Source of the DNA: Streptomyces halobius
GTDB taxonomy: Bacteria > Actinomycetota > Actinomycetes > Streptomycetales > Streptomycetaceae
DNA length: 64,000 nucleotides
Direction: 5' to 3'
NCBI RefSeq assembly: GCF_023277745.1
Contig: NZ_CP086322.1
Location: 1,426,001-1,490,000 of the forward strand
Shown here one piece after another: positions 18,958 to 40,682 of this stretch. The position numbers and the translations under genes were made by a program. Position 1 is the first letter of the stretch. Each line of letters starts with the position of its first letter. The notes under the pieces were generated by a model. That model made no database searches. It was not told the DNA's origin and saw only the letters and a list, made by a program, of their open reading frames with translations.

Positions 18958-19236
18958 TTACTTCTCCTTCCGGCTCTTGGCCGTGCGGTGGTCGTCGCAG
19001 TACTTGGGCTTGGGGCCCTTGCCCTGCGGACGCTTGGGGTTGGCGCACTCGCCGAACGTGCAGCGGTCGACGGGAACGGGCAGGTCGGCCAGATTGTCGG
19101 CTTCGGCAACCTCGGGCACCTCCGCCGCGCGAGGCGGGGGCTCCGGCGCACGTTCGGCCTTCTTCGCCTTACAGCCGAGCCAATGGGTCGGCGTGCCGTC
19201 GGCCTGCGGCTCCCGACCGCAGTGCTTGCAACTCAT
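18958..19236 (-). CDS. Zinc-ribbon-like protein, 92 aa
   Basis: Begins M-S-C-K-H-C-G-R-E and contains C-T-F-G-E-C and Y-C-D-D-H-R motifs. Together these make two C-x2/4-C knuckles plus Cys/His separated by an acidic Pro-rich linker. The C-terminus is Lys-rich. ATG overlaps the portal stop as ATGA. Zinc binding is likely from the Cys pattern; its role next to the portal is unknown. Confidence 0.6.
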   Translation of the reverse strand: MSCKHCGREPQADGTPTHWLGCKAKKAERAPEPPPRAAEVPEVAEADNLADLPVPVDRCTFGECANPKRPQGKGPKPKYCDDHRTAKSRKEK

Positions 19237-21065
19237 GCGGGTACCGATCGCTTGACGGAGGCGGACAGGTTCGGCCGGCCGGAGCTGGTGAGTCCGGCCA
19301 AGAGCGTCTGAAGGTCAGGTCGGCCGCCCGGGCCGAGCTGGGCCTGGCCGGGCGCAATACCGCCCGGCAGGCCGGTCGACGGGTTGATTCCGAAGGGCAC
19401 CCCGGGTTCACCACCCTCGCCAGCGCCCGGGGTGCCCGGGGGAGCGGCGGCCGAGGCGGGCTCAGGCTGCGGCTCCGGCTGGAAGGCTTTCAGGATCGCC
19501 TCGTGCATCGGCATCTTCTCGCGCAGCTCGATGATCGAGGCGGCCTTGGTGAGGATCATCGTCGGATCCATGCCCTGCTGCGCCATGATTCCGGCCGAGC
19601 TGAGCAAGGCGAAGATGCCCTGCTTGAGCGCGTCGGTGGTCTGCTCCTTGTCCACCTCGGCCTGGAGCTGAGCAACATCCACATCCATCGGGAGCTGACG
19701 CTGGACGAAGTCGCGCGGCACCAGCTGGTCGCCGCGGAGCTGAAGCAGGAAGACCAGCGCCTGATTAGGGTTCATCCCCGAGGCGAAGCCGTAGCTCACG
19801 CTGACGCGATAGTTGCCCTTGATGTCCTTGGCGGGGGTGTAGCTCTCCTTGAATGGCGTCCCGTTGATGACGCCGGTGATCTCCTTGAAGGCATCCGGCC
19901 AGAACTTCTCGTCCATCTCGAAGGCCAGCTCAAGCGCCTGCTCCAGAGCGTGGCCGATCATGAGCTGACCGGTGGCGATCTGCACGTCGTAGCCGCCGTT
20001 GAGGGCGTCCACGCCCTTGCCGGTGATGATCGAGGCGTCCACATCGCCGGTGGCGCTAGCCGGCGTGCGTGTGCCACGCATGACCTCCTGGGAGAGGATC
20101 GCATCCTGCTGCCAGGCCGCCTGCGGCAGGTCGGTGCCGACCCTGCGGATCTTCTCCGGGCTGTTGGTCCGGATGACCTGGTCGTCGCCGAAGCCGATCT
20201 TCTGGACGTCGGTCGGCACGGCCAACGGGGCCCTGACCGTCTGCTGCGTGGCCTGAAGGGCCAGCATGGCCATGCGGTTGTGCGCGAGCATCGGCCAGAC
20301 CACGTCGTCGTACTGGCCGCGGTCCTGGTCGTCGTAGGACGGCTTGAGCGCGATGGCCACCGGGACCTTGCCGAAGCGGTTCGGCATGTCCATCAGGACA
20401 AGGTTCTTGCGCTCCGGCATGTAGAGGACGTAGGAGTCCTTGTCGCAGTACTTGATGACCTCAAGCTCAGCGTCCGGCGAGGTCTGCTTGTCCCACGGGG
20501 ACTCCGGCCGGCCCATGATGGCGGCGGCGTGCTCGGGGAACTTGTCCGCGAGCTTCCAGGCCGCCTCACGCCAGACCTTGGTGTAGCTGACGACTCGACC
20601 CGCCAGGTCGAACTGCGGGTAGGTCTTCATCGGGTTGTCGAAGCGCAGCCTCGGCGCGCCGGCCTCGAAGTCCGGCTCCACGACGATCGGCATCGAGCCG
20701 TACGTCAGGTACCAGTCGCAGCCCTGCGGCATCCGCGCCTTGAGCGCGGAGTTGATGATGTAGCTGTAGGCGATCTTCGTCCGGCGGGCGATGCGCTTCT
20801 TGGCCCGCTCGGAAGACTCCCGGCCTTCACCCGAGGCGCAGTTGATGCTCGGCAGCGGCGCCAGGTTCTCCGCCAGCTGCCGCGCGCTCGCGTCGATGAG
20901 GTTGGCGACGATCGGGCGCGGCCACGCGTCCGGCATCGTGCCGGGGGCGATCTGGTCGATCTTCTGCGCGCGAGCGTCGTAGATCGTCTGGTGTCGCTGA
21001 TCCCGGTCGACGGCATCACGGCGCAGCGCTTCGACTCGCCGAGAGACCTTCGATATATCTGCCAT
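19233..21065 (-). CDS. Portal protein, 610 aa
   Basis: Size (610 aa), acidic mixed composition and order (after terminase, before capsid) are those of a portal. Recognisable features include the N-terminal W-P-R-P-I-V-A-N-L-I-D-A segment, a central beta region with W-Y-L-T-Y-G-S-M-P-I, and a long C-terminal stem/crown helix region, followed by a Pro/Gly-rich tail (last ~100 residues). GAGGTGTC precedes the ATG. It forms the dodecameric DNA channel at the capsid vertex. Confidence 0.85.
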   Translation of the reverse strand: MADISKVSRRVEALRRDAVDRDQRHQTIYDARAQKIDQIAPGTMPDAWPRPIVANLIDASARQLAENLAPLPSINCASGEGRESSERAKKRIARRTKIAYSYIINSALKARMPQGCDWYLTYGSMPIVVEPDFEAGAPRLRFDNPMKTYPQFDLAGRVVSYTKVWREAAWKLADKFPEHAAAIMGRPESPWDKQTSPDAELEVIKYCDKDSYVLYMPERKNLVLMDMPNRFGKVPVAIALKPSYDDQDRGQYDDVVWPMLAHNRMAMLALQATQQTVRAPLAVPTDVQKIGFGDDQVIRTNSPEKIRRVGTDLPQAAWQQDAILSQEVMRGTRTPASATGDVDASIITGKGVDALNGGYDVQIATGQLMIGHALEQALELAFEMDEKFWPDAFKEITGVINGTPFKESYTPAKDIKGNYRVSVSYGFASGMNPNQALVFLLQLRGDQLVPRDFVQRQLPMDVDVAQLQAEVDKEQTTDALKQGIFALLSSAGIMAQQGMDPTMILTKAASIIELREKMPMHEAILKAFQPEPQPEPASAAAPPGTPGAGEGGEPGVPFGINPSTGLPGGIAPGQAQLGPGGRPDLQTLLAGLTSSGRPNLSASVKRSVPA

Positions 21066-21098: not shown

Positions 21099-21992
21099 CT
21101 ACGATTCCATCCTCGCGGCGAGAACATCTGCCACCTTCTCCGCGACTGCCTGCATCTGCGTGTCGGTCAGGCCGGTCGTCTCCAGCGCGTCGACCTTTGC
21201 GGTGAGCGCATCGACCCGCTTGAGGATCTCGGTGAAGGCGTACTTGGTGGTGTAGGTCGGGTTGTCCGCCGGGGCTCCGGGGATCACGATCAGGCCGTCT
21301 CTGTTCAGGACCGCCGTGGCGATCTTGTCTGCGTCGGCGTTGGTGATGGCCATACTGTCCTCCTGTTCAGGCCCCCAGCTGCCCGCGGGCAGCGCCAGGC
21401 ACGCCGCGACATCGCGGCGGAAGGTCTTCATGTCGATGCCGCGGGGATCGACCTTGCCGGGCTGCCATTCCTTGTGCGCGATGACCGACTTGGCGGTCCA
21501 GCCGTACTCACGCAGCACGGCCGCGGCAGCCTTGACCATGGCGACGTACTGCACGCGCGGCCACGGGTCCTCGCCATCGCCGAGGTTCTCGCACTCGAAC
21601 CCGTAGAACCTCGCGTTCCCGTCGGTGTTGGCCTGGTTGTCCGGCGGCGGGTAGTCGCCGTAGCTCTCGTTGATGACGGCTCGCAGCACATCGCTGTCGC
21701 CGAGCCCGGCATGGTTCGAGCGGCCGGCCGAGGTGAGCCACACCGTGCCGGACTTGGTGATGCAGCCCTGGGAGAGCGGCCCCGGCAGCGAGGAGTGGCC
21801 GTTGTAGATCAGGGCCACGACGTCCGTCCCCGGACCGGTCACGGTGTGATGCATCATCACGCCGTTGATGGGGCCGAAGGCCCCCGTCGATGGCGGTCGG
21901 CGATGGGTCTCCCAGTCCCGATACTCACGGACCGAACAGCCCTCGCGGACCAGGGTCGCCTTGAGGCGGCTCGCACTCAGTGGGTCAGCCAT
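21099..21992 (-). CDS. Endolysin, N-acetylmuramoyl-L-alanine amidase, 297 aa
   Basis: Residues about 40-200 are an Amidase_2/PGRP domain: M-M-H-H-T-V (zinc His48/49), N-H-A-G-L-G (His93), G-F-E-C-E-N, and V-I-A-H-K-E-W-Q-P-G-K-V-D (His173 and Asp182). Zinc amidases cut the bond between muramic acid and the stem peptide. The C-terminal ~90 residues are helical with a coiled-coil-like end, possibly wall-binding or oligomerising. There is no signal peptide, consistent with holin-dependent release. ATG overlaps the terminase stop (TAATG), an unusual place for a lysin gene. Confidence 0.85.
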   Translation of the reverse strand: MADPLSASRLKATLVREGCSVREYRDWETHRRPPSTGAFGPINGVMMHHTVTGPGTDVVALIYNGHSSLPGPLSQGCITKSGTVWLTSAGRSNHAGLGDSDVLRAVINESYGDYPPPDNQANTDGNARFYGFECENLGDGEDPWPRVQYVAMVKAAAAVLREYGWTAKSVIAHKEWQPGKVDPRGIDMKTFRRDVAACLALPAGSWGPEQEDSMAITNADADKIATAVLNRDGLIVIPGAPADNPTYTTKYAFTEILKRVDALTAKVDALETTGLTDTQMQAVAEKVADVLAARMES

Positions 21993-23983
21993 TACCAGCG
22001 CAACCTCCCGTCCCAACCGGACACCGCGCCCTGCTGGAGCGCGAAGTCGATGTCCACGACCATCTGGTGGGACCGATCGACCTCGGAGGTGAACTCCGAG
22101 GCGTCCAGGTGGAAACCCGAGAAGTCGCTCATCACCAGCTCGCGGCAGCGGATCTCGGCGAACCACAGGGCCATCACCGTGTCGGTCAGGCCCTTGCTCT
22201 CGGGGAACCAGCTGCACAGCTGCTCGACCAAAGCCCGCACGGACTCGGACTGGGTCTGCGAGGGCAGCCGGATCAAGTTCCGCCCGTCCTTCCAGCCCTC
22301 GAAGAGCGTGGCCATGGAGGCCACGCCGAAATCGGAGTCCCACTTCTTCTGGTCTGTGTGGTGCGCGGTCATCAGGCAGCCGCGCATGTTCAGGTACGAG
22401 CGGATGTCCGCGTCCTGGACGATCGAGCCCTGGTAGGCGTTCTTCTCCACGCGCCACTCGGAGATGCCGTAGCGCTCGGTCAAGCGCTTGATCTCGGCAC
22501 GCATCTCATGCGGCGGCATGGCGCGCTTGTTGATCACGTCCAGCAGCCAGCGCACGCCGGTCTGACGGTCCAGACCGATGACGACCATGGCGGTGTAGCC
22601 GGCCGCGGCAGGGTCAAGGCCAGCGACGACCAGCAGGCCGTCCATGCCGTAGGTCCGATGGTCGCTCTGCCCGGCGAACATCCTCCCCGGATACCTCGCC
22701 CGGTCCACGCACCCCTGGACGTCCTCCATCGCGAAGATCGCGTCGTCGGCCACCTGGTCCTGCATGTAGACGAGCGACCAGTTCCTGGGACTCATTTTCC
22801 GGCGCTTCTTCGCCAGGGCCGGCCCGTCCCACATCGGCCACAGACCCTCCTCGTCCTGACTGACGAGCTTGCGAGCCCTCACCGTCACCGGAGGCCGGTT
22901 GGTCCTCGGCCACAGGGTTACCCAGTCCTTCGGGTCGTCCGCGTACTCCAGGACGGCCGGCTGCGTCAGGTACGTCCACGGGCTCTCGCCCTCCGCGTAG
23001 TACTGCGGTTTCAAGATCTCGCTGTAGAGATCCACGGTCTCCATGCGCGTGCCGATCAGCAGCATGCGCCCGCCGGCGTCCGCGACGCGGGAGCCCACCT
23101 GGTTCTGAATCCAGGTGATCTGCGACTCGAACTGCTGGTGGTTGGTGTGGTCTACGCAGTCGTCCATGATCGCCAGATCACAGCGCGAGCCGTAGATGTG
23201 ACCGCCGATACCCACGGCCTGAACCGTGGGGTCCTTCTCGCCCGAGTCCCGGCCGGCCACGTAGATCTTGTCGGCAGTCCAGGCCGCCGATCCCTCGGCG
23301 AAGCCTCCGGGCGGCGCGAACGCCTGCTGGAGGTCGGTGTAGGCGTCCGAGGCCGCCAAGCGCTCCTTGATGCTCAGCAAGAACTTCTTCGCCATGTCCT
23401 GCGTCTTGCTGATCAGCAAGACGCGGACGTTGGGGTCCTGCACGATGCGCCAGACCACGTAGTTGACCGTGAGCGCGGTCGATTTCGCGTGCTCGGGCGG
23501 AGTGTTGACCAGGATCTGGTCCTCATCCCCGCGCACGAAGCGCTGACGGGGATGCAGGTCCCGGGGCTCACAGCCCTCCAGCAGGTCGTACCACTGCAAG
23601 TGATGCCAGAACAGCCGGGTGTTCAGGTACTTCTGACAGAACTCCGGAAAGTCCGGCACGACCTCGCGGTTGCCCGCGACCCGCTCCAGCTTGGCCTGGA
23701 GAGCCTTGTCGATCAGAGACCGGAAGTCGACATCCGTCTTGCGGTAATAGTCGTACGCCTTGCGCGAGCGGTTCGCCCGCCGGCACCCCTCCTCGATCGT
23801 CCCGCCCATGCGGACGGTCGCGAGGATGATCTGCTTGCACTCCTTCGAGGAGCGCTCGTCGCTGCGCCGGTCCCGGGTCTTCAGGGGCGGCAAGTCGCCC
23901 TGGATTAGCTTGACCACCGCCACCTCCCGCCGGCGGGCCCCCAGGGGGCCGTTCAGCGGGGCAAGGTACGTGCGCCAGCGCAT
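21992..23983 (-). CDS. Terminase large subunit, 663 aa
   Basis: An N-terminal helical region precedes an ATPase domain with a deviant Walker A (N-T-P-P-E-H-A-K-S-T, about residues 158-168) and Walker B (L-A-I-M-D-D, about 268-275). The C-terminal nuclease has RNase-H-like G-L-D-P-A-A-A-G (Asp near 455) and later acidic residues. It packages DNA into the procapsid. I chose ATG at 23983 because AGGA lies about 10 nt upstream and the longer extension is non-coding in character. It is the first gene of the late operon; no small subunit gene is recognisable nearby. Confidence 0.9.
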   Translation of the reverse strand: MRWRTYLAPLNGPLGARRREVAVVKLIQGDLPPLKTRDRRSDERSSKECKQIILATVRMGGTIEEGCRRANRSRKAYDYYRKTDVDFRSLIDKALQAKLERVAGNREVVPDFPEFCQKYLNTRLFWHHLQWYDLLEGCEPRDLHPRQRFVRGDEDQILVNTPPEHAKSTALTVNYVVWRIVQDPNVRVLLISKTQDMAKKFLLSIKERLAASDAYTDLQQAFAPPGGFAEGSAAWTADKIYVAGRDSGEKDPTVQAVGIGGHIYGSRCDLAIMDDCVDHTNHQQFESQITWIQNQVGSRVADAGGRMLLIGTRMETVDLYSEILKPQYYAEGESPWTYLTQPAVLEYADDPKDWVTLWPRTNRPPVTVRARKLVSQDEEGLWPMWDGPALAKKRRKMSPRNWSLVYMQDQVADDAIFAMEDVQGCVDRARYPGRMFAGQSDHRTYGMDGLLVVAGLDPAAAGYTAMVVIGLDRQTGVRWLLDVINKRAMPPHEMRAEIKRLTERYGISEWRVEKNAYQGSIVQDADIRSYLNMRGCLMTAHHTDQKKWDSDFGVASMATLFEGWKDGRNLIRLPSQTQSESVRALVEQLCSWFPESKGLTDTVMALWFAEIRCRELVMSDFSGFHLDASEFTSEVDRSHQMVVDIDFALQQGAVSGWDGRLRW

Positions 23984-24277
23984 TTTCACTAATCCTGCTA
24001 GCAGTCCAGGATGCGCGAACCTCAACCATGCTTGAGTTTTGTTTTTTGCAGAACCATCAGGTCTTCTATGCATGCCGAGTTGAGCACGCTCCTCGGTCAC
24101 CGAATCTGAAATTCGATGCAGGCCGTCAGAGGGCGCCGCATAAGCGCGCCCGGATTCGGCCGGGCGCAACCACGAGTAGAGGGACGTCCGGAGGCCGGAG
24201 CGCCGTGGCGGACCAACGAAGACGACTGAGGCACATGTCGTGATCCCCTACACAAGCCGCGCTGGCCAGGAGTAACG
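23984..24277. promoter_or_regulatory. Upstream region of the late operon
   Basis: No gene is supported here. It includes an A/T-rich stretch at about 24,030-24,075 (TTGAGTTTTGTTTTTTGCAG), unusual for this GC-rich genome and a plausible site for the late promoter reading left. I could not define -35/-10 boxes with confidence. Confidence 0.35.
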
Positions 24278-24988
24278 CCCTGAGCCCTTCCCTGTCAGGG
24301 GCTCCCCTGCCCACGCGCCGCCAGCGCGTGGGACCGGCCGCGGCCGGCAGCCGCGGAACCAGACCGGCGCCTCGCCGGCGGCACCAAGCCGCTATCGGCG
24401 AGAATGGCGCCGGAAAGGGCCCGGAGGGCCCAGAGGGCGGCCGACACAAGCCGCCCCAGTACCAGGGGGTTTGCCAGAGATGGATGGTCGGAGACCATCC
24501 CATCCCATCGGCCCCAGGTTTAAAAACCTGGAGTCAGACCTGCTCATGACCATGGAATCGCAGGCCAAACAGGGGTTACAGCCCCTGTTTGAGCCGATGG
24601 GATGGTGTCGAGTCGACACCCTCACCTGCATCGATGTGCAGGTTCTGGTGTCGCCGACATGGTGTGACCTAGCGGGTCACACCTAGTACATGGTCAGCCG
24701 AGCCTTACAGGCTCACGGGCTGACCCATGGTCCGGCCGCAACAGGTCAGGCGGCCGGACCTAGTAGGGGGCGCAGCTCTTCGAGCTGCTGCCCTGCTGGC
24801 TCGTGTGCAGGGGCTTGCGCCCCTGATACTCGCTCCGGCCGTCTAGGCAGAGCGCAGCTCTGCCGCACTGGCCACCCGTCCCCTTGAGGGGACGAGGCGG
24901 AAGAGGGGGGCAGTGTCGGCCCGTATAGGCGGCGGGCCGACCATGGGCCGCGCCATGGCGAGCGCGGCCCCTGACGCGCGTACGCGCG
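24278..24988. repeat. Tandem array of about two dozen unrelated perfect hairpins
   Basis: Consecutive stem-loops with different stem sequences and short loops. Examples: 24310-24332 (9 bp), 24334-24347, 24364-24378, 24417-24431, 24435-24456 (7 bp), 24482-24500 (8 bp), 24514-24531, 24539-24564, 24567-24590 (9 bp), 24604-24620, 24624-24643 (7 bp), 24661-24683 (9 bp), 24692-24725 (two-part stem), 24729-24760 (11 bp), 24772-24788 (7 bp), 24808-24825 (7 bp), 24846-24864 (8 bp), 24877-24894 (7 bp), 24915-24941 (9 bp), 24945-24970 and 24975-24988. No ORF is credible. A structured RNA, an origin or packaging element, or an attenuator array are all possible. Confidence 0.85.
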
Positions 24989-26254
24989 CGAGAGCGCCGC
25001 TCCCTCTTACGCGCCGCCGCATCTTCCGTCACACACGCCCCATCTACCCCATCGATGTATCGACATGACACGCAGTCATATGACGCATGCGTATCACCTC
25101 TGACCTGCTGTTACGCCCTACGTCTGATATCAGCCACTCTCCATAACCTGCACACGCAGATGACCAGCTTGTGAACGAGTCGGATTCCCGACTTCAGACC
25201 TAGCCCGTCTGCTCATCAAGCGACTGAGTGTCGCCTAACTAGCCTCGCTGAACAGGTAACTTGGTAGATCATTCACACTTTACTTTCTCTTTACTATTGA
25301 GTCTCTTGACCGGAAATCCGACCAGGAGGAGTGTTGAAAGCGTTCCACCCCGGCTTCACCGGGGAGCGGACGGGAGAGCCGAGAGGCTGAAACGGACCGC
25401 GTGGGGCCTGAGAACTGAACAGCGGAGTCCGCAGGGATAGCGCGGGATCAGACCGCGTGGCAGGTGGCTAGGTCGAGGGACCGGGGCCATACCGCACGCA
25501 ACAGGTGATCACCTCACGCCAGGGCAGGCGTGGGCCGTCGTACGGGCCCTTCCCTTTCGGGACACATGTGGTAGTCGGTGCACACGTCGACTACGCGGCA
25601 TGCACAGTTCAGCTACGCACACCGCAAGCGATCCACACCCGTACCCAGGGTCTTGACCACTCCGCACCCTCCAAACGGCCCTGATGGGCCGTGAGGGGCG
25701 TTCGAGGGTCCGAGGGCAGACGGGCGCGAGGACCGGGCGCGTAGAGCCACTGACAGACACGTAAGGGCAGCACATACGCGGCACAGACGTGCGATGGCAC
25801 AGGAGTTGGGAGCCTACGGGCACCAATACGCGGCATGAGCTAGATGGCGGGGTAACGGCCCACCATGGCGACGATTGCCAGTGCATCAGCCGGAAAAGTC
25901 GGCGGTCGCCACCACGTCCCGCACAGGGACGGAACGTCATATTCACACGCCGCACCACTCTTTGCTGCACCTGCGAACCGTGAGCCATGCGCAGTGATGC
26001 GTGTGGGGCGGGCTAGTGATCCGTCGCCTTGAGCGACGGGAGCGCATGTGGCGCTATCCGGCACGCCGTTCGTCATGCGGGCAGGGCTGATCTCCCTGCC
26101 CGTTTGATGATCGCTCACACGAGCGTCATAGGGGGGTGCGTATTGGAGAGCGGTGATCCGGACCTGATCCGGGCCTGTCCGTGGGCCGAACTTTGGAGAC
26201 GAGCCCATGGAGCGCACCCCCTGCCCATCACATGATCCTTTCGGGAGGGGAATC
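24989..26254. other. Gene-free region with further stem-loops before the small-gene operon
   Basis: No convincing ORF on either strand. The part at 25,080-25,320 is less GC-rich and may hold the rightward promoter. Stem-loops recur, for example AGCC-GAGA-GGCT near 25,378, a 7-bp stem ending in GGGCCGT near 25,690, CCGTCGC/GCGACGG at 26021-26039, AGCGC/GCGCT at 26041-26055, CGGGCAGGG/CCCTGCCCG at 26078-26102 and 26107-26129. TTGGAGAG at 26,144 and TTTGGAGA at 26,191 resemble the small-gene ribosome sites without a following gene, and may be cassette remnants. Confidence 0.5.
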
Positions 26255-26527
26255 ATGATCAACACCGATGGCTGGATGGTTGTAAACGAGGTCACGGGCG
26301 ATGCACCGATCAAGGGCGACACCGTGACCAGCTTCCGGGGCGAGGAATGGCGGCTGGATGCCATCTCGCGCCTGCCCGAGGGCAACAGCATGGGCCGTGT
26401 CCTGGTGTCGCGTGAATGCCCGGAGTGTCGAGGCAAAGAGCACGTCGTGTCGTGGCACCGAGACGAACGCGAACAGCGCGAGTTTCTCCCGTCCGTGTTC
26501 GACCTCGTGATCACGGAGGACCACTGA
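26255..26527 (+). CDS. Small phage protein with Cys-x2-Cys, 90 aa
   Basis: ATG at 26255 follows GGGAGGGGAATC, the local ribosome-site style; an upstream ATG at 26207 in the same frame is an alternative. The product contains C-P-E-C-R-G and H-V-V-S-W-H, possibly one zinc knuckle. First gene of the small-gene series, followed by the hairpin at 26536. Function unknown. Confidence 0.65.
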   Translation: MINTDGWMVVNEVTGDAPIKGDTVTSFRGEEWRLDAISRLPEGNSMGRVLVSRECPECRGKEHVVSWHRDEREQREFLPSVFDLVITEDH

Positions 26528-26535
26528 CCCAGTGA

Positions 26536-26572
26536 CCGACTTGGCGCCCGCCCCCACCGGGCGCCTTGTCGG
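26536..26572 (+). terminator. Intergenic stem-loop (cassette type A)
   Basis: Two-part stem CCGAC-TT-GGCGCCCG with CGGGCGCC-TT-GTCGG. An almost identical copy is at 29250-29286. It lies between a stop codon and the next GGAGAGG ribosome site. Probably a transcription attenuator or terminator; the U tract is weak. Confidence 0.55.
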
Positions 26573-26617
26573 CCCCGACTGGGAGGGCCGGTCAGTCCCT
26601 TGGAGAGGGGAATGATC

Positions 26618-27103
26618 ATGAACAACGAATACGGGCACAGCATCCTGTGCGCATGGCCGTACCGGCCCTGTGCGGCCCTGTGTGGCGTCGCCACGGAGCG
26701 CACGTCGCCCAAGTTCAGTTCCGCTCTGGCCGAGCGTCTGTGGACGTTCACGTTGGAGTCTGGCCAGGATGACGACCTGGGTGACGAGTCCTTCGGATGG
26801 TTCGACCTGTTCAAGGGCGAGAACGCCATCCTCATGACCGACGATCAGGGGTTCGTCGACACGGTGGAGTTCGTAGGGACCGTGACAGGCGCATGGGCCG
26901 GAATCGAGACGGCTTGGCATGCGCATCACGTGCGCACGGTCGTCGATGCGCTGGACACGTCGGAGTGCGACGAGCTGTTCAGCATCGTCAACGTGAACAA
27001 GATCTATACGGCCGACGGCCTGCCGGACATGGACGAGATCGCCGAGCACATCAACGTGCACCGCGAGTGCTGGCAGCGCAACGCATGGACATTGGAGGTC
27101 TGA
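26618..27103 (+). CDS. Acidic phage protein, 161 aa
   Basis: I chose the second of two close ATGs (26612, 26618) because its spacing to TTGGAGAGGGG matches the other cassettes. The product is acidic with F-D-L-F-K-G-E-N-A-I-L-M-T-D-D and a helical C-terminus. Its acidity and size recall DNA-mimic anti-restriction proteins, but I see no specific family motif, so it remains hypothetical. Confidence 0.65.
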   Translation: MNNEYGHSILCAWPYRPCAALCGVATERTSPKFSSALAERLWTFTLESGQDDDLGDESFGWFDLFKGENAILMTDDQGFVDTVEFVGTVTGAWAGIETAWHAHHVRTVVDALDTSECDELFSIVNVNKIYTADGLPDMDEIAEHINVHRECWQRNAWTLEV

Positions 27104-27113
27104 CGCACCATCA

Positions 27114-27139
27114 CGGGCCCGGCTTGATCACCGGGCCCG
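27114..27139 (+). terminator. Intergenic stem-loop
   Basis: Nine-bp perfect stem CGGGCCCGG / CCGGGCCCG around the loop CTTGATCA, located 10 nt after a stop and upstream of the next GGAGAGGGAG site. Confidence 0.5.
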
Positions 27140-27172
27140 CACTGCTTCGCAACCCTGGAGAGGGAGACCATC

Positions 27173-27400
27173 ATGACCGAGCGCAGCAACAACTACCCCA
27201 CCGGCGACCCGTCCGGAATGTCGTTCATCGCGAACCGATGGACGTTCACGGGTCCGCAGGGATACCGCGTTGTGTTCGATGGCGACGGGTACACCGTCCT
27301 GTCATACAACGGGGCGGAAGAACGCCCGGTACCTCACGGGCGGGGGCTGTCCGAGGACGACGCGCACGCGTTGGCCGCGCGGCTGTCCGGGAGGGGCTGA
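27173..27400 (+). CDS. Small phage protein, 75 aa
   Basis: ATG preceded by TGGAGAGGGAGACC. Predicted small beta protein (W-T-F-T-G-P-Q-G-Y-R-V-V-F-D) with a helical end. First gene of a three-gene cassette with close spacing (2 nt and 2 nt). Function unknown. Confidence 0.6.
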   Translation: MTERSNNYPTGDPSGMSFIANRWTFTGPQGYRVVFDGDGYTVLSYNGAEERPVPHGRGLSEDDAHALAARLSGRG

Positions 27401-27402
27401 CC

Positions 27403-27594
27403 GTGACCAACACGAGCGAGCGTTACGACGTGTGGATCTTCGGCCGTTTGCCGAAGTACGTCCCACGCGGTGGTGTCGCGTCGATCACCAGTGGACTCAC
27501 GCTGGAAGAGGCACGCGCGTACCGCGACAAGAACACCGACGCGAACCACTACGGCCTGATCTACGTCGCGGGCACCCGTCGGCGGGTGAGCTGA
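27403..27594 (+). CDS. Small phage protein, 63 aa
   Basis: GTG start 2 nt after the previous stop, with GGGAGGGG 8-12 nt upstream. The product begins M-T-N-T-S-E-R-Y-D-V-W-I-F-G and has the look of a small alpha/beta protein with a basic end. Function unknown. Confidence 0.6.
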   Translation: MTNTSERYDVWIFGRLPKYVPRGGVASITSGLTLEEARAYRDKNTDANHYGLIYVAGTRRRVS

Positions 27595-27596
27595 CC

Positions 27597-27941
27597 ATGA
27601 TCAACACCGAAGAGCTGCCCGCGATCACGCACGTGTGGTCGTCGTTCGGACACACCTTCCTGAGCACGGGCGAGTACGACAGTGATGGCAATCCGTATGA
27701 GAAGTGCCTGACCTGCGGCGCCCAGTACGTGTGTAGTCGGCGGGAAGACGACCCGTCCGGCGGCGACTATCAGGCCAGTAACGGCGACGACCCCACCGAA
27801 TGCACGGGGCGCACCGACCTGTACCACGGTGAGGCGCCCTGTCAGGCGGACTACGGCCACCCGTGCGCGGCGGCCGAAGACGGGCCGTGCGAGCACGAAG
27901 CGCACACACACGAGTGCAATTGCCTGTACTGCACTGGCTGA
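27597..27941 (+). CDS. Cys/His-rich protein, probable zinc binding, 114 aa
   Basis: ATG 2 nt after the previous stop. It carries C-L-T-C in the middle, more Cys at about 46, 69, 82 and 90, and a C-terminal C-E-H-E-A-H-T-H-E-C-N-C-L-Y-C cluster. This pattern suggests at least two zinc sites. It ends the three-gene cassette; a strong stem-loop follows. Function unknown. Confidence 0.65.
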   Translation: MINTEELPAITHVWSSFGHTFLSTGEYDSDGNPYEKCLTCGAQYVCSRREDDPSGGDYQASNGDDPTECTGRTDLYHGEAPCQADYGHPCAAAEDGPCEHEAHTHECNCLYCTG

Positions 27942-27960
27942 TTCTCTGTTGGCCCAGACT

Positions 27961-27997
27961 GCCTCACGCCCTGACGTCCCCACCGGGGGTGTGAGGC
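27961..27997 (+). terminator. Intergenic stem-loop
   Basis: Eleven-bp stem (GCCTCACGCCC / GGGTGTGAGGC, one G-T pair) followed by CTTCCTGGTCTTGCAG, a tail shared with the next intergenic hairpin at 28260. Confidence 0.55.
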
Positions 27998-28027
27998 TTC
28001 CTGGTCTTGCAGAGGGGAGAACTGACC

Positions 28028-28240
28028 ATGACGACACACACGAGCGGCCCTGACTATCGCGCGGAAGCGGTCCGGGCGCTGGTCGAGAAACTGAACGCCG
28101 GTGAGGACCGGAACCGTCCGCAGCGATGGGAGCCGGTCATTCCGCACGACACCGTGATCACGGTGTTCCCTGGCTACGTGATCCAGTTCGGTGATGGGTT
28201 CAGGCGTGATCGCTGGTACTACCTGAAATCCGGAACCTGA
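28028..28240 (+). CDS. Small phage protein, 70 aa
   Basis: ATG after AGAGGGGAGAACTGACC. Helical N-terminal half (A-E-A-V-R-A-L-V-E-K-L) and a beta C-terminal half (V-I-T-V-F-P-G-Y-V-I-Q-F). A monocistronic cassette flanked by stem-loops. Function unknown. Confidence 0.6.
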   Translation: MTTHTSGPDYRAEAVRALVEKLNAGEDRNRPQRWEPVIPHDTVITVFPGYVIQFGDGFRRDRWYYLKSGT

Positions 28241-28259
28241 CTCCCTGTCGGATCAGCTT

Positions 28260-28289
28260 GCCCGGCACCTTCCCCATGGGGTGTCGGGC
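28260..28289 (+). terminator. Intergenic stem-loop
   Basis: Ten-bp stem (GCCCGGCACC / GGTGTCGGGC, one G-T pair) followed by the same CTTCCTGGTCTTGCAG tail as at 27998. The tail is not a U tract. Confidence 0.5.
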
Positions 28290-28312
28290 TTCCTGGTCTT
28301 GCAGTGAGACCA

Positions 28313-28339
28313 CGGCCGGCGACTGATCCTCGCCGGCCG
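28313..28339 (+). terminator. Second intergenic stem-loop
   Basis: Perfect 10-bp stem CGGCCGGCGA / TCGCCGGCCG with loop CTGATCC, directly before the next CTTGGAGAGGGG site. Two hairpins in one gap. Confidence 0.5.
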
Positions 28340-28366
28340 CAGGACTTCCCTTGGAGAGGGGAGATC

Positions 28367-28618
28367 ATGACCGAAAAGATCCCCGAGCCGCAGCTCGGCG
28401 AAATCGTACTGGGCGGCATCCTGGCCGCCCTTGAGGTTGTCGAGGAGTGGCGCGACAGTCAACCCCACGTTGTGGACTATCGCATCGAGGACGGTCTATA
28501 CGGGCTTCAGCTGGCCCGTAAGGCGTTGTCGCACTACCAGATGGGCACGCAATACCCCGAGTGGGAGGCAGCCCGTAAGCGCTTCGTCGCAACCCTTCGC
28601 AACGAAGGTGGCGAGTGA
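28367..28618 (+). CDS. Small helical phage protein, 83 aa
   Basis: ATG after CTTGGAGAGGGGAGATC. Mostly helical, acidic first half and basic second half, with no membrane segment. Its TGA overlaps a possible GTG start of the next gene, so the two genes form a coupled pair. Function unknown. Confidence 0.65.
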   Translation: MTEKIPEPQLGEIVLGGILAALEVVEEWRDSQPHVVDYRIEDGLYGLQLARKALSHYQMGTQYPEWEAARKRFVATLRNEGGE

Positions 28619-28620
28619 TC

Positions 28621-29241
28621 ATGGCGAAGCGACTGGCTACGCGTTCATGGCAGGCTCGTGAGGCTCTGGCGCGGCGTGAGCCGTACAACACGTACGGCGC
28701 TATGCGCGCGGAAGAGGGCGGCTCATGGAGTGCCGGGCGGCTCCCCGAACCGTGGCGTGAGCGCTACTTGAACGCCTACCGAGACAACAGGATCACCTAC
28801 ACCGTGCTGTCGTATCACACCCCCATTGCGTGGGTGCTGGACGACGGAGAGGTGATCGTGCCGGACGTGAAACACAGCCGCACCACGACCCGTCACCAGG
28901 ACCTGCTGTACGCGCTGGGACGGTCGTCCGACCAGTTCGCCAGGGAGGCACAGGAGGAGCGTCAGACGGCCCGTCAGCGGGCCGCAGAGCGACGAGCAGA
29001 GCGACGCGAGCGGCCGACCACGGTCACGTCCTTGCCAACACGGCCGACGGCCGTCAAGGCGGAGTCAGCAGAGCCATACGACCCGTACGCGGATCGGCCC
29101 TCCCGTAATCCGGTCGTGGCGCTGCGGCCGGTACCGAGGTCCTCCGGTGAGGCTGCCATCTATTCGGTCGAGTACCTGCACAAGCGCGAGAGCGCGTACG
29201 GCACGGAGCCGGACCGGTGGCGCCAGTTGCCCGTTGAGTGA
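28621..29241 (+). CDS. Conserved-looking phage/mobile-element protein, 206 aa
   Basis: The central segment Y-H-T-P-I-A-W-V-L-D-D-G followed by S-R-T-T-T-R-H-Q-D-L-L-Y-A-L resembles a domain common in phage and plasmid proteins of actinobacteria. An Arg/Glu-rich helix (about residues 108-130) and a disordered Pro/Arg segment follow. ATG at 28621 chosen; GTG at 28615 is an alternative. Possibly DNA-associated; function not assigned. Confidence 0.65.
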   Translation: MAKRLATRSWQAREALARREPYNTYGAMRAEEGGSWSAGRLPEPWRERYLNAYRDNRITYTVLSYHTPIAWVLDDGEVIVPDVKHSRTTTRHQDLLYALGRSSDQFAREAQEERQTARQRAAERRAERRERPTTVTSLPTRPTAVKAESAEPYDPYADRPSRNPVVALRPVPRSSGEAAIYSVEYLHKRESAYGTEPDRWRQLPVE

Positions 29242-29249
29242 CCCGGTGA

Positions 29250-29286
29250 CCGACTTGGCGCCCGTCCCCACCGGGCGCCTTGTCGG
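29250..29286 (+). terminator. Intergenic stem-loop (cassette type A, second copy)
   Basis: Same two-part stem as at 26536-26572, with one change in the loop; the flanks are also nearly identical over about 50 bp. Confidence 0.55.
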
Positions 29287-29327
29287 CTCCAACCGGGGCC
29301 GATTGATCCCTGGAGAGGGAGATCATC

Positions 29328-29459
29328 ATGGAGACCATCATCACGATCTTGATCGTGAGCGTGATCGTCTACGCGCTCGGCTTCGGCAAGGGCCGCAGTG
29401 CGGGCCAGACGGACAACGTCACCCGCGCGGTGGCGGACCTGCTGAGCAGGGGGCGTTGA
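29328..29459 (+). CDS. Single-pass membrane peptide, 43 aa
   Basis: ATG after TGGAGAGGGAGATC. Residues 3-19 (I-I-T-I-L-I-V-S-V-I-V-Y-A-L) form one hydrophobic helix, then a basic polar tail. The consensus ribosome site and the 2-nt gap to the next gene support it. A small membrane peptide in early phage regions could act in superinfection exclusion; that is speculation. Confidence 0.6.
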   Translation: METIITILIVSVIVYALGFGKGRSAGQTDNVTRAVADLLSRGR

Positions 29460-29461
29460 TC

Positions 29462-29689
29462 ATGGCTGAGCGCTGCCTGGCCGAGTACACCACCGTCCCT
29501 GGTCGCTTCCAGTGCATCAGCGACCCGGTGTTTCACTTCCGGTGGGTTGTGAACCCTTCAGGCTTGCCGAATAGCGGCAAGCACTGGGAGTCGTGGAGCT
29601 GCGCGCAGCACGCTGCGCGGATCATCCGCTTCGCCACAGCCATGCGGGGCCTGGTCGGCTCCGTCAGCGTCGAGCTGCATACCGATTGA
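29462..29689 (+). CDS. Small phage protein, 75 aa
   Basis: ATG 2 nt after the previous stop. Contains C-L-A-E-Y-T, F-Q-C-I-S and W-S-C-A-Q-H-A, a Cys/His spacing compatible with one zinc site. No recognised family. Confidence 0.6.
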   Translation: MAERCLAEYTTVPGRFQCISDPVFHFRWVVNPSGLPNSGKHWESWSCAQHAARIIRFATAMRGLVGSVSVELHTD

Positions 29690-29706
29690 CCCGCTGTCGG
29701 GCCATC

Positions 29707-29732
29707 GGGTGCCCGCCCCCCACCGGGCGCCC
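29707..29732 (+). terminator. Intergenic stem-loop
   Basis: Nine-bp stem GGGTGCCCG / CGGGCGCCC (one T-G pair), resembling the inner part of the type A element. Confidence 0.5.
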
Positions 29733-29781
29733 TCTTGGCCCCGCAAGGGGGAGGACCGACGCCCTTGGAGAGGGGATCGTC

Positions 29782-30210
29782 ATGCGTATCGCTACTGCCA
29801 TCACGCTGGTTGAGCAGCTGACCTACAAACCGGGGTGGGCGTTCACGGCCACGGACCACAGCAACAGGTTCGAAGGCGTGATCAAGATCCGGGTGGACTA
29901 CCCGGCCCGCAACTCCGCTCGGGACCAAGCTGAGGCTGGATACCCGGAGGAGATCGTCACCTATGCGGAGTTCCCCATCCTGGTGGGGGACTGCGGCGAC
30001 GGCCTGCGCCTGTACCGGCGCCTGCTGGCCTCGATCGTAGAGATCGAGACGCACGAGGCGCGCGAGTTCCTGCGGCTGCCCGAGAGCAACTGGGCGCCGT
30101 TCCACCCGCACAGGATCGACGGCATGCGGAATTGGGCTGCCATGGCGCACGATCCGGACGCGGCGGTGATGCAGGGACTGTCGAGGGATCTTCAGTTCGG
30201 CATCGCGTAG
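29782..30210 (+). CDS. Phage protein, 142 aa
   Basis: ATG after CTTGGAGAGGGGATCGTC. A mixed alpha/beta protein with W-A-F-T-A-T-D and F-E-G-V-I-K-I-R-V-D-Y strands followed by a helix (R-L-Y-R-R-L-L-A-S-I-V-E-I-E). Stand-alone cassette ended by the stem-loop at 30221. Function unknown. Confidence 0.65.
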   Translation: MRIATAITLVEQLTYKPGWAFTATDHSNRFEGVIKIRVDYPARNSARDQAEAGYPEEIVTYAEFPILVGDCGDGLRLYRRLLASIVEIETHEAREFLRLPESNWAPFHPHRIDGMRNWAAMAHDPDAAVMQGLSRDLQFGIA

Positions 30211-30220
30211 CAGCATCGAG

Positions 30221-30243
30221 GGGCCCGGCCGATCACCGGGCCC
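30221..30243 (+). terminator. Intergenic stem-loop
   Basis: Eight-bp stem GGGCCCGG / CCGGGCCC followed by TCTCTCATCTG, one of the few hairpins here with a pyrimidine-rich tail. Confidence 0.55.
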
Positions 30244-30280
30244 TCTCTCATCTGATCACCCATTGGAGAGGGGATTGATC

Positions 30281-30532
30281 ATGAGCAACGAGATCACTCC
30301 GGCGAACCTGCCGGACATCGGGTCCAATGAACCCGTCGTCACGTTTGTGATGCTGGAGTGCCGCACCTGCGGCGAGCACTCCGGCTGGGTCCGGTCGGAC
30401 GATCAGATGGCGCCTGCCTGGGACGGCGGCCATTTCACGTCCACCGGTCACACCAGGTTCTACCTGTGGTCGGTTACCCGGAACACGGCCCAGGTGTCCA
30501 CGTTCAAGGCGCGGAAGCGGGGCAAGCGATGA
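30281..30532 (+). CDS. Zinc-finger-like protein, 83 aa
   Basis: ATG after TTGGAGAGGGGATT. C-R-T-C-G-E-H-S-G-W and H-F-T-S-T-G-H-T-R-F form a C2H2-like zinc knuckle pattern also seen in small actinobacterial proteins (DUF7848-like). The C-terminus is basic. Stop overlaps the next start (ATGA). Role unknown; nucleic-acid binding is possible. Confidence 0.65.
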   Translation: MSNEITPANLPDIGSNEPVVTFVMLECRTCGEHSGWVRSDDQMAPAWDGGHFTSTGHTRFYLWSVTRNTAQVSTFKARKRGKR

Positions 30533-30729
30533 ACCCCCTGGAACTGCGCTACGCGCTGTACGTCTTCCTGTCGGGCCTGAGCCAGCCTGCGGCGATCAAG
30601 TGGGCTGTTCTGATCAGCCCTGAGCCAGGCGAGCCCGTGGCAATCGAAGTCGGCGTGGACGACGAATACAGCACGCCCCCGATGGTCCGGAAGTACCGGA
30701 TCATCATCGAAGAGGTCGCCAACTCCTGA
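30529..30729 (+). CDS. Small phage protein, 66 aa
   Basis: ATGA overlap with the zinc-finger gene indicates coupled translation. A helix (residues 1-25) and two strands (W-A-V-L-I-S, K-Y-R-I-I-I-E-E) are predicted by eye. Function unknown. Confidence 0.6.
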   Translation: MNPLELRYALYVFLSGLSQPAAIKWAVLISPEPGEPVAIEVGVDDEYSTPPMVRKYRIIIEEVANS

Positions 30730-30747
30730 CCCTGCCGGGCCCAAGCC

Positions 30748-30778
30748 GGCCGCACGGTGCCCCCAGCACCGTGCGGCC
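30748..30778 (+). terminator. Intergenic stem-loop
   Basis: Perfect 13-bp stem GGCCGCACGGTGC / GCACCGTGCGGCC with a 5-nt loop, then CTCTTGGCCTT. The strongest hairpin of the cassette series. Confidence 0.65.
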
Positions 30779-30810
30779 TCTTGGCCTTACAAGGAGAGGA
30801 GAGGGCCGAC

Positions 30811-31405: not shown

Positions 31406-31408
31406 ACC

Positions 31409-31441
31409 ACGGGCCCCGGGACTGATCCCCCGGGGCCCCGT
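31409..31441 (+). terminator. Intergenic stem-loop
   Basis: Twelve-bp stem ACGGGCCCCGGG with CCCGGGGCCCCGT (one bulged C), between the broken gene and the next AAGGAGAGG site. Confidence 0.55.
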
Positions 31442-31468
31442 CATCGCGATCAAGGAGAGGAATCGACG

Positions 31469-31837: not shown

Positions 31838-31848
31838 CTCCAAGCTCC

Positions 31849-31875: not shown

Positions 31876-31899
31876 GTTCATCACCAAGGAGAGGAAACC

Positions 31900-38588: not shown

Positions 38589-38657
38589 TGCCGCCACATG
38601 GGCGACCCCGGCGGTGCTACGGCACCCCGGGGGTTGGCCAGTAGCGAAGGAACTGAC

Positions 38658-40682
38658 ATGACACAGGCTCTCACGAGCACGCTGCGAGCCGTCGACTACC
38701 TTCGAGTGTCGACCGAGCAGCAGAAGCAAGGCTACGGCATCAGCTATAGCGCCAAGAAGACCGCGAAATACATCGAGCGCAAGGGTTGGGCTCACGTCGG
38801 CACCTTCAAGGACGAGGGAGTCCAAGGCTCCCTGTCCTGGCAGGAGCGGGAAGACGCCCAGAAGCTGATGAAGCTGGCCCGGCAGGAGCCGAAGCCCTTC
38901 GACGTGGTGACAGTCCACGAGACGCGGGCCATCGGCCGCACGGACCGCGCCTTCTATCGCTGGGTATGGGAGCTGCAAGACCTCGGAATCTTTGTCGCCA
39001 TCGCCGACAAGGACATCGACAACACCACCGAGGATGGCGAAGCCGCCATGCGCGAGGAGGCGAACTACGCCTTCAAGGAGTACACGCGCATCCGGGTACG
39101 CACCCAGAACGGCATCCAGGAGAAGGCGGAGGAAGGCGGGCACCCGGGAGGCGCCACGCCGTATGGCTGGCGCATCGAGAACCAGGGCAAGAAGGGCGAG
39201 TCCCGCCTGGTCCTCGACACCTGCCCGGCGGACGAGCACTGCACCGCGACCCATGAAACGGACGTGCTCGGACGGGCCTGGCACCTGATCGTGCTGGAGC
39301 ACAAGAACCGCCGCCAGGCGGCCATGACTCTCAACGCCGAAGGCTTCCGGACTCGCTCGGGGAAGCTCTGGACCGAGGGCAACCTGGGACGCAAGCTTCA
39401 GTCTCGGGCCGTTCAGGAGGCCCGCATGATCTACCGCAACCCGGAGACCGCGGGGAAGAGCAACGGCACGAAGCTCGGCATGGACGGCCAGCCAGCCAAC
39501 GGCCAGACCGTGGTCATCGACCTACCTCGCCTGTTCAGTGAGGCGGAAGTGGCCCGCCTGAACAAGGCCCTGGCCCGCAATTCACGGTCCCGGCGGCCCG
39601 CCTCCGAAGGGGGCATCCATCCGCTCTCCAAGCGCGTCTTTGGCGCGTGCGGGAAGTACTACACGGGGCTGGACCGGTGCGACCGGCCGGGCCGGATGTA
39701 CCGGTGCACAGGGAAGACCGAGGCATACCCCGGCGCCCAAGTGTGCAACTGCTCGCAGGTGGACGCGGATGCGCTCGAAGAGCGCGTCTGGGCGGAGGTG
39801 CGCAGCATGCTCGAAGACCCTGATCGCCTGACCCGCATGGCGCATGACTGGCTGGACCTGGCGACCGGCCAGAAGGTCAACCACGCCGAGCGCATCGCCG
39901 ACCTGGACAAGAAGATCGAGGCTCAGGACGACGCCATTGCCGCGATGATGGTCCTCGCCGCCAAGCAGAGGAAGTCTCCCGAAGCCGTCGCCAAGGCGAC
40001 GAAGACTCTGGAGGACGAGCGTGAGGAGCTTGTCAGGCTGCGCGCCGAGGCCGCAGCTTGGCAGCAGGAGTCCGAGCTTGCCGAGCGGCGAGCCCACGAT
40101 CTTCAGGCTTTGGCCGACATGGCGCGGACGCGCATGGCGCACATGACGCCAGAGGAGAAGGCCGAGGTCTGTGACCTGCTCGACCTGAAGGTCACCATGA
40201 CCGGACCCGTGCCGAAAAAGGTGCGGGCAGACGACACTCTCAGTGCCTGGTTCCGGGAGCGAGGCCGGCCGGTGCCGGTCCTGGATGACGCGGCATGGGA
40301 GAAGGTGCGGGGCATCTTCGAGGGCGCCGATGTGCGCAACCGGCGTGATCGCCTGCCGCACCGCATGGTGCTGGAAGCGGTGCTCATGAAGGCCCGTACC
40401 GGCCTGCCATGGAAGGAGTTGCCAACCGAGTACGGCAAGACAACCGGGCTGACCACTCGCTACCAGCGCTGGATGGCTTCAGGGCTCTTCGAGGAGGCCA
40501 TGGAGGCTCTGGTCGACTGCGAGGGCACTCCCCTGCCGAGTCAGTATCCACTGCCTCCACTGGTGGTGGAGGGCAAGATCGATCCCAGGCTCCTCATCCG
40601 AGTTCCTGAAGCACCTCAGCAGGCGGTCACGAGCGCTCGGGTGATGTCCCAGGGGAATTCGTGGGTCGCGGTGATGCGGTAG
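38658..40682 (+). CDS. Large serine recombinase (integrase) with C-terminal DUF4096-like domain, 674 aa
   Basis: The N-terminal resolvase domain begins Y-L-R-V-S-T-E-Q-Q (catalytic Ser18) and includes R-A-I-G-R-T-D-R. A recombinase domain (about residues 165-270), a zinc ribbon region with A-C-G-K-Y-Y-T-G and C-T-G...C-N-C, and a long coiled coil (about 420-510) follow. Residues about 542-618 (W-E-K-V-R-G-I-F, K-A-R-T-G-L-P-W-K-E-L-P) resemble the DUF4096 DNA-binding region of IS5-type transposases. I chose ATG 38658 (AAGGAA upstream). The last ~17 residues appear to be read from host DNA across the attachment junction. Confidence 0.9.
   Translation: MTQALTSTLRAVDYLRVSTEQQKQGYGISYSAKKTAKYIERKGWAHVGTFKDEGVQGSLSWQEREDAQKLMKLARQEPKPFDVVTVHETRAIGRTDRAFYRWVWELQDLGIFVAIADKDIDNTTEDGEAAMREEANYAFKEYTRIRVRTQNGIQEKAEEGGHPGGATPYGWRIENQGKKGESRLVLDTCPADEHCTATHETDVLGRAWHLIVLEHKNRRQAAMTLNAEGFRTRSGKLWTEGNLGRKLQSRAVQEARMIYRNPETAGKSNGTKLGMDGQPANGQTVVIDLPRLFSEAEVARLNKALARNSRSRRPASEGGIHPLSKRVFGACGKYYTGLDRCDRPGRMYRCTGKTEAYPGAQVCNCSQVDADALEERVWAEVRSMLEDPDRLTRMAHDWLDLATGQKVNHAERIADLDKKIEAQDDAIAAMMVLAAKQRKSPEAVAKATKTLEDEREELVRLRAEAAAWQQESELAERRAHDLQALADMARTRMAHMTPEEKAEVCDLLDLKVTMTGPVPKKVRADDTLSAWFRERGRPVPVLDDAAWEKVRGIFEGADVRNRRDRLPHRMVLEAVLMKARTGLPWKELPTEYGKTTGLTTRYQRWMASGLFEEAMEALVDCEGTPLPSQYPLPPLVVEGKIDPRLLIRVPEAPQQAVTSARVMSQGNSWVAVMR
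40610..40665. other. Probable right attachment junction (attR)
   Basis: Host-family similarity on the minus strand (MpaB/DUF2236) stops near 40,631, inside the integrase 3' end on the plus strand. A serine integrase core is short, so the exact crossover cannot be read from one junction alone. Confidence 0.6.

What the first reader, a model, noticed from the sequence alone, without database searches (positions are those of the whole stretch)
24278..24988. About two dozen perfect hairpins in tandem, each with a different stem
Seen directly: successive stem-loops (7-11 bp stems, 3-10-nt loops) fill about 700 bp, while stem sequences differ from one to the next. Architecture without sequence repetition suggests selection for structure, perhaps a large phage RNA (as GOLLD/ROOL-type RNAs are), a packaging or origin element, or a set of attenuators. 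It lies between divergent late and early operons with no ORF.
Basis: partly seen in the sequence, partly recalled or inferred. Interest (0 to 1): 0.85.

Follow-up and report, generated by a model that had tools for sequence, protein, structure and literature searches.

The report
Giant folded RNA of Streptomyces phages
A stretch of a Streptomyces prophage packed with different hairpins is very probably part of a large, elaborately folded RNA that related phages carry at the start of their late genes; it resembles the giant phage RNAs whose purpose is still unknown, but it matched no catalogued family tested.

Summary
In detail: 24278-24988 has 16 non-overlapping perfect hairpins with stems of at least 7 bp (22 with at least 5 bp); shuffles give 0.7 on average, at most 4. 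It is part of a larger element, about 24074-24995, on the MINUS strand, just upstream of the terminase gene of a Streptomyces prophage. Two conserved modules were found. A 213-nt 3' domain (24074-24286), with seven helices including a pseudoknot, recurs upstream of TerL in 11 distinct loci; over 10 of them 97% of pair cells are paired, against 32-47% when partners are slid, and 22 of 47 pairs changed on both sides. An array module (24431-24545) occurs in 24 distinct loci, 10 of them not used to build its model, all on the TerL strand; its three hairpins have different stems in different phages. In the 3' domain G-U outnumbers A-C 24 to 4, which points to the TerL-sense strand. The element matches no Rfam family, so it is not a GOLLD or ROOL by that test. 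Best reading: a new family of large ornate phage RNA at the 5' end of the late operon. Transcription and function are inferred; single-stranded DNA is not excluded.

The parts
24074..24995 (-). proposed large structured RNA (ends inferred), 922 nt, upstream of and in the same direction as TerL
   Evidence: RNA fold -547 kcal/mol, z -11.75 against 20 dinucleotide shuffles; conserved modules below. The + strand folds about as well in 200-nt windows, so energy does not tell the strand
24074..24286 (-). conserved 3' domain (covariance model R1), 7 helices
   Evidence: R1 203 bits in the window; 11 distinct loci in all; covariation
24264..24286 (-). P1 hairpin with strongly conserved loop GCRTTACT (L026 and L030 vary one base)
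   Evidence: 5 of 7 pairs doubly changed in 10 sequences; the window has one bulged base here
24186..24213 (-). pseudoknot helix a, GTCCG (24213-24209) with CGGAC (24190-24186)
   Evidence: 10 of 10 sequences pair; 3 of 5 pairs doubly changed
24170..24208 (-). pseudoknot helix b, CCACG (24208-24204) with CGTGG (24174-24170), crosses helix a
   Evidence: 10 of 10 sequences pair; 1 of 5 pairs doubly changed, in one sequence only (L030)
24146..24167 (-). P5 hairpin GCGCCCGG
   Evidence: 4 of 8 pairs doubly changed
24101..24115 (-). P7 hairpin CGAAT-TTCAG-ATTCG (core)
   Evidence: 5 of 8 pairs of the whole helix doubly changed; one pair that is U-G in 8 and C-G in 2 of 10 sequences
24074..24096 (-). 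P8 near-invariant hairpin around GAGCGTGCTC
   Evidence: 6 of 8 pairs never vary, 2 doubly changed
24431..24545 (-). conserved array module (model R2): three hairpins around the linker CARACYCC
   Evidence: 24 distinct loci, all on the TerL strand, 10 of them not in the seed; stems differ, positions kept
24514..24531 (-). H1 hairpin with TTTTAAA-type loop
   Evidence: perfect stem >=7 bp at this place in 12 of 23 loci, 2.8% of shuffles
24482..24500 (-). H2 hairpin
   Evidence: perfect stem >=7 bp in 13 of 23 loci, 3.0% of shuffles
24435..24456 (-). H3 hairpin
   Evidence: perfect stem >=7 bp in 18 of 23 loci, 2.6% of shuffles
21992..23989 (-). terminase large subunit, next gene downstream of the RNA
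   Evidence: phrog_38, E 1.1e-74
19233..21065 (-). portal protein
   Evidence: phrog_104, E 1.1e-27
38598..40682 (+). serine integrase of the prophage
   Evidence: phrog_95, PF00239

Best explanation
The array is the variable 5' and middle part of a large structured noncoding RNA, about 0.9 kb, read from the minus strand. It would be the first thing transcribed when the late operon (TerL, portal, tail genes) is switched on. In the window it ends in a pseudoknotted 3' domain that part of its relatives share. Like GOLLD and ROOL it most likely acts as a folded RNA body in late infection rather than as a coding leader: single stems may change as long as they pair. Shown by computation: hairpin excess, conserved modules, covariation, pseudoknot, one favoured strand, place upstream of the late genes. 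Inferred: that it is transcribed, that it works in trans, and what it does.
For: 3' domain: 97.4% of 453 cells paired against 31.9-47.3% slid, 22 of 47 pairs doubly changed, 0 of 500 shuffles as high (alignment fitted to the model). The seed alignment, made by MAFFT without structure, gives 98.2% and 17 of 47, slid 28.1-48.6%. A scan of all helices without a named structure ranks P7, P1, P5 and PKa highest. R1 finds L024, L039, L120 and L126, not in its seed, at 112-193 bits; L024 and L039 had been seen in an earlier alignment. Upstream regions, arrays and 3' domains together, 15 locus pairs: at doubly changed cells 139 of 226 are Watson-Crick against 22-29% with partners slid; the window's own pairs 18 of 27 against 17-42%. 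R2: the 10 distinct matches outside its seed all lie in arrays on the TerL strand. Strand: G-U 24 against A-C 4 in the 3' domain; C-GNA-G loops 39 against 8 over 27 upstream regions (three of them without an array), control region 17 against 11. In L030 a 428-aa ORF lies between the RNA and TerL, so the element is not tied to the TerL start.
Against: No transcript was seen, and no sigma-70-type promoter match or minus-strand terminator was found in 23700-26300. Fold energy does not favour the minus strand: the sense strand had the larger excess in 39 of 84 structured windows. The helix scan of the 3' domain gives only slightly more doubly changed pairs on the sense strand (24 against 20), and one helix outside the model scores as high as PKa. 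G-U is not clearly favoured in array stems (21 against 14, p 0.31, or 9 against 9). In the window alone C-GNA-G loops are 1 sense against 3 antisense. Many array stems have no one-to-one partner: unfiltered, 134 compensatory, 100 GT, 74 AC and 356 other changed cells in 12 locus pairs. R1 is present in only 9 of the 24 R2 loci. H1 is under 7 bp in 11 of 23 loci. R2 is in effect a sequence profile with 3 base pairs, and its weakest matches are marginal (L052, E 0.0098).
Confidence: 0.62

Rival explanations
1. Cis-acting leader of the late operon: the RNA folds on the nascent transcript and controls late transcription, as an antiterminator (put-like) or attenuator, or protects the mRNA 5' end.
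For: In the loci examined it lies upstream of TerL and in its direction, also where another ORF comes first. Weak constraint on stem sequence suits a structural leader.
Against: About 0.9 kb with a pseudoknot is far larger than put elements (recalled). No terminator-like hairpin with a T-run on the minus strand. Three Beephvirinae-type regions (JXY1, FlowerPower, L055) lack it.
Confidence: 0.2
2. Single-stranded DNA element: one strand is exposed during replication, packaging or entry and folds into DNA hairpins used by a replication, packaging or virion protein (as N4 promoter hairpins are).
For: C-GNA-G loops, known as very stable in DNA (recalled), prevail on one strand. Place beside TerL; in two Beephvirinae genomes terminal repeats of 264 and 253 bp lie upstream of TerL. 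G-U not clearly enriched in array stems.
Against: Conserved single-strand motifs, pseudoknot and wobble bias in the 3' domain, although a folded ssDNA could show them too. Relatives with known ends have no array. The 1647-aa protein of the late region matches no solved structure by sequence.
Confidence: 0.1
3. Packaging RNA: the RNA is a working part or cofactor of the packaging motor, as pRNA is in phi29.
For: TerL is the neighbour in each locus with R1 or R2; four motif matches without TerL had no R1 either. Most loci were found through TerL, which favours this result.
Against: No match to an Rfam family in the element; the relatives with 50-53% identical TerL that were searched lack R2.
Confidence: 0.08

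Closest known systems
GOLLD RNA
   Same: large phage and prophage RNA, many over 800 nt, conserved 3' region and less conserved 5' region, function unknown (PMC12286853, passages)
   Different: no Rfam match; beside TerL, no convincing tRNA gene near; built mainly of many short different hairpins; its 3' domain is itself not universal
ROOL RNA
   Same: large, pseudoknotted, phage-borne, function unknown (PMC12286853, passages)
   Different: no Rfam match; no convincing tRNA gene near; array of variable length
phi29 pRNA
   Same: phage RNA with a pairing-rich fold; linked here to the packaging gene by position only
   Different: about 174 nt (recalled); no Rfam match
HK022 put RNA
   Same: RNA hairpins at the start of a phage operon (recalled)
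   Different: much smaller, two hairpins (recalled)

Membership tests
GOLLD | match to the Rfam covariance model | tested here: not met
   not among the matches at gathering score in the window or 14 array loci; nothing at E<=1 for 23900-25700
GOLLD | location near tRNA genes | tested here: not met
   one weak tRNA-like match 12 kb away in the window; in 23 loci with up to 5 kb of flank one doubtful tRNA-Pyl call
GOLLD | conserved 3' region with variable 5' region | tested here: inconclusive
   true for the 11 loci with R1; the other R2 loci have a different 3' part
ROOL | match to the Rfam covariance model | tested here: not met
ROOL | homo-oligomeric RNA cage | not testable with these tools
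   needs cryo-EM
large ornate phage RNA (kind, not a family) | elaborate covarying structure in noncoding phage DNA | tested here: met
large ornate phage RNA (kind, not a family) | expressed as RNA | not testable with these tools
   no transcript data held
phi29 pRNA | required by the packaging motor | not testable with these tools
   only neighbourhood of TerL seen

The most novel reading that the evidence does not exclude
A further class of giant self-assembling phage RNA beside GOLLD and ROOL, carried by a lineage of Streptomyces phages and soil relatives, whose many freely changing hairpins form the body of an RNA particle made at the start of late expression and possibly joined to genome packaging.
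Probability: 0.22. Interest if true: 0.9.

Novelty: new variant of a known kind. Interest (0 to 1): 0.72.

Why it matters
Giant phage RNAs such as GOLLD and ROOL are elaborate structured RNAs whose purpose is unknown. A separate family at a fixed place beside the terminase gene, in prophages of culturable Streptomyces, gives a new system in which to ask what such RNAs do: there are natural variants with and without the 3' domain, and related phages (Beephvirinae) that live without the array. It also shows a way of evolving in which paired stems turn over freely while a few motifs stay.

Tried and rejected
Chance palindromes in GC-rich DNA: rejected by shuffles. Coding: the ORFs across the array are short (65-125 aa), and only one, 24471-24686, passed a loose codon-position filter, with a third-position GC of 0.69. 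Repeat array: stems are not copies of each other. Known RNA family: no match in the element. DNA relatives of 24000-25600 in phage and plasmid records: none at E 1e-5. RNA fold energy as a strand test: no answer, since perfect stems fold equally on both strands. G-U count in array stems: no clear answer; the tRNA control is itself only 12 to 5. Ranking single column pairs by covariation: confounded by relatedness, 6 of the top 20 were native; the scan by helix was clearer. The RNAalifold structure of the array module kept only 3 pairs, because stems shift in the plain alignment, so stems were listed by place. Motif scan of viral contigs: 14 matches, 10 of them on contigs with TerL beside them (two of these, L114 and L119, carry the same sequence); L111, L113, L115 and L121 showed neither TerL, portal, integrase nor R1 and were dropped as chance. 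The L040 minus-strand match of 25 bits was taken as chance and left out of A6; it is a row in A4. Duplicates left out of counts of distinct loci: L027 (as L028), L029, L020 and L109 (as L023), L046 and L127 (as L024), L108 (window). A virion RNA polymerase reading of the 1647-aa protein: no PDB sequence match, only a PHROG of unknown function.

Full report
WHERE IT IS. The window lies in a 9.24-Mb single-contig chromosome. Its genus is that of G209 and G569, which I identify with S. hoynatensis and Streptomyces sp. MP131-18 because contig length, position and bit scores agree with L023 and L024; so Streptomyces, by inference. The left 40.7 kb look like a prophage: terminase large subunit, portal and tail genes on the minus strand, early genes on the plus strand from 26207, a repressor-like gene at 33796-34659, a serine integrase at 38598-40682. 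Its left end was not located. The array lies between the divergent operons.

OBSERVATION. In 24278-24988 there are 16 perfect non-overlapping hairpins with stems of 7 bp or more, against 0.71 on average and at most 4 in 300 dinucleotide shuffles; 22 with 5 bp or more against 7.75. It is the richest of 91 bins of 700 bp in the window. No two stems of 7 bp or more share a run longer than 6 nt. The 922 nt of 24074-24995 on the minus strand fold at -547 kcal/mol, z -11.75 (20 shuffles).

RELATIVES. TerL was used to find the same place elsewhere: 3 loci in public genomes, the best 80 of 212 in viral contigs, 3 of 392 genomes of the genus, and 31 phage records with at least 80% of TerL covered, all below 60% identity. 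The three phage records looked at (WRightOn, FlowerPower, JXY1) are Beephvirinae, about 53% identical in TerL. Among loci with TerL 61-81% identical, 17 distinct ones have 11-19 hairpins in their densest 700 bp, which lies upstream of TerL; L033, L036, L042, L044 and L053 have 6-9 there, most of them with about 1 kb or less of upstream DNA held. In L030, L039, L043 and L050 no dense stretch was seen upstream, the upstream DNA being short or, in L030, the element being at the contig end. WRightOn, FlowerPower, JXY1, L055 and the low-GC group at about 50% identity do not have such an array, although the low-GC group has several shorter hairpins upstream of TerL.

3' DOMAIN. Aligning upstream regions in TerL sense showed compensatory changes in stems and near-invariant unpaired motifs. 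A hand-made structure of seven helices on a MAFFT alignment of 7 sequences gives 98.2% of 327 cells paired and 17 of 47 pairs changed on both sides, against 28.1-48.6% paired when partners are slid. On 10 sequences: 97.4%, 22 of 47, slid 31.9-47.3% (this alignment was fitted to the model and so leans towards it). Two helices cross: GTCCG/CGGAC with three doubly changed pairs and CCACG/CGTGG with one, the latter resting on a single sequence, L030. A scan of all possible helices without a given structure puts P7, P1, P5 and PKa highest; one helix not in the model scores as high as PKa, and the antisense scan is only slightly poorer (20 against 24 doubly changed pairs). The covariance model R1 finds 11 distinct loci (window, L023, L024, L025, L026, L028, L030, L033, L039, L120, L126), upstream of TerL on its strand, besides one weak match of 25 bits on the other strand of L040. 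In drawn samples of genomes R1 matched 2 of 392 of the genus, 4 of 391 of the order and 1 of 345 of the class; the samples overlap, stricter filters were used, and the hits are all in the same genus. G248, which has a 71% identical TerL, has no R1 match.

ARRAY MODULE. Model R2, in effect a sequence profile (3 pairs only), finds it in 23 of 42 sources searched: its 14 seed loci and 9 others (L054, L031, L022, L120, L126, L045, L041, L049, L052) with E from 1.7e-9 to 0.0098. The 19 sources without a match are the three Beephvirinae records, L055, nine low-GC relatives, and L030, L036, L039, L043, L044 and L050. It is also in L021 (G248), E 5.3e-8, which makes 24 distinct loci, all on the TerL strand. 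R1 is in 9 of these 24. Stems at the three places differ widely between loci. Perfect stems of 7 bp or more are present in 12, 13 and 18 of the 23 loci, against 2.6-3.0% in shuffles. Over 15 pairs of upstream regions (arrays and 3' domains together, cells counted from both sides) doubly changed cells are Watson-Crick in 139 of 226 against 22-29% with partners slid; for the window's four pairs 18 of 27 against 17-42%. Counts against: many stems turn over (134 compensatory against 100 GT, 74 AC and 356 other changed cells without any filter, 12 pairs).

STRAND AND MOLECULE. In the 3' domain G-U cells are 24 and A-C cells 4 when read in TerL sense (cells of 10 related sequences, not independent), and one pair is U-G in 8 of 10 sequences and C-G in the other 2. 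C-GNA-G loops are 39 in TerL sense and 8 in the other over 27 upstream regions, three of which (JXY1, FlowerPower, L055) have no array; the control region gives 17 and 11, the window alone 1 and 3. This speaks for one working strand, so against cruciforms or plain dsDNA binding sites. RNA is the simplest molecule, since the strand is that of late transcription; ssDNA would show much the same signs. Array stems give no clear G-U bias, and the tRNA control shows that the test is weak. Energy is silent.

MECHANISM. Committed reading: an RNA made at the onset of late transcription that acts as a folded body, with an array of pairing-conserved but sequence-free stems and, in part of the family, a conserved 3' domain. 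The place upstream of the late genes is kept even where an ORF of 428 aa (L030) or, read by eye from the alignment, small ORFs (L022, L034, L036, L037, L038, L053) stand before TerL. Trans action is inferred. A cis leader, an ssDNA element and a packaging RNA remain open, in that order.

COMPARISON. GOLLD and ROOL (PMC12286853; passages read) are the nearest in kind: large, ornate, phage-borne, function unknown, GOLLD with a conserved 3' region and a variable 5' one. In the element itself no Rfam 15 model reaches E 1 (23900-25700). In the window the gathering-score scan gave only two Sernc350 matches outside the prophage; a more sensitive scan of 24900-41000 added a weak tRNA match at 36084. 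In 14 array loci the only match was a hammerhead ribozyme in L023, outside the array. Searches of the held PMC library found no description of this element (listings and abstract starts only, except passages of PMC12286853 and PMC11536984); papers outside that library were not searched.

Noticed in passing
L023:2129-2193 (-): Type II hammerhead ribozyme (52.8 bits, gathering score 37) about 2.2 kb upstream of the R2 module, on the strand opposite to TerL, in the S. hoynatensis phage. None was listed in the window from 24900 to 41000 at E 0.5.
   Followed up: partly
55637-56147 and 57257-57758 (-): Two matches to Rfam Sernc350, an antisense RNA family, each antisense to one of two neighbouring predicted genes, 55489-57012 and 57206-58621.
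   Followed up: no
36084-36159 (+): tRNA-like sequence (31.2 bits, gathering score 29) with odd anticodon loop, inside the predicted 403-aa ORF 35924-37135.
   Followed up: no
38598-40682 (+): Serine integrase whose C-terminus matches PF13340 (DUF4096, IS4/5 transposase domain); to my knowledge an unusual combination.
   Followed up: no
L105, L106, L107: WRightOn and FlowerPower have terminal repeats of 264 and 253 bp upstream of TerL; the noncoding region of JXY1 and FlowerPower shows repeated TGTCCG motifs, seen by eye, in place of the array.
   Followed up: partly
G209:C27 (L124, L125): The 46,451-bp contig with the S. hoynatensis phage has ends that overlap by 21 bp, and its title gives coverage 273, so the phage may be circular and outside the chromosome.
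   Followed up: partly
L030:477-1763 (+): 428-aa ORF without Pfam match lying between the RNA and TerL.
   Followed up: partly
L037:3591-3677 (-): ARAGORN calls a tRNA-Pyl (CTA) in the hairpin-rich region upstream of TerL; possibly a false call.
   Followed up: no
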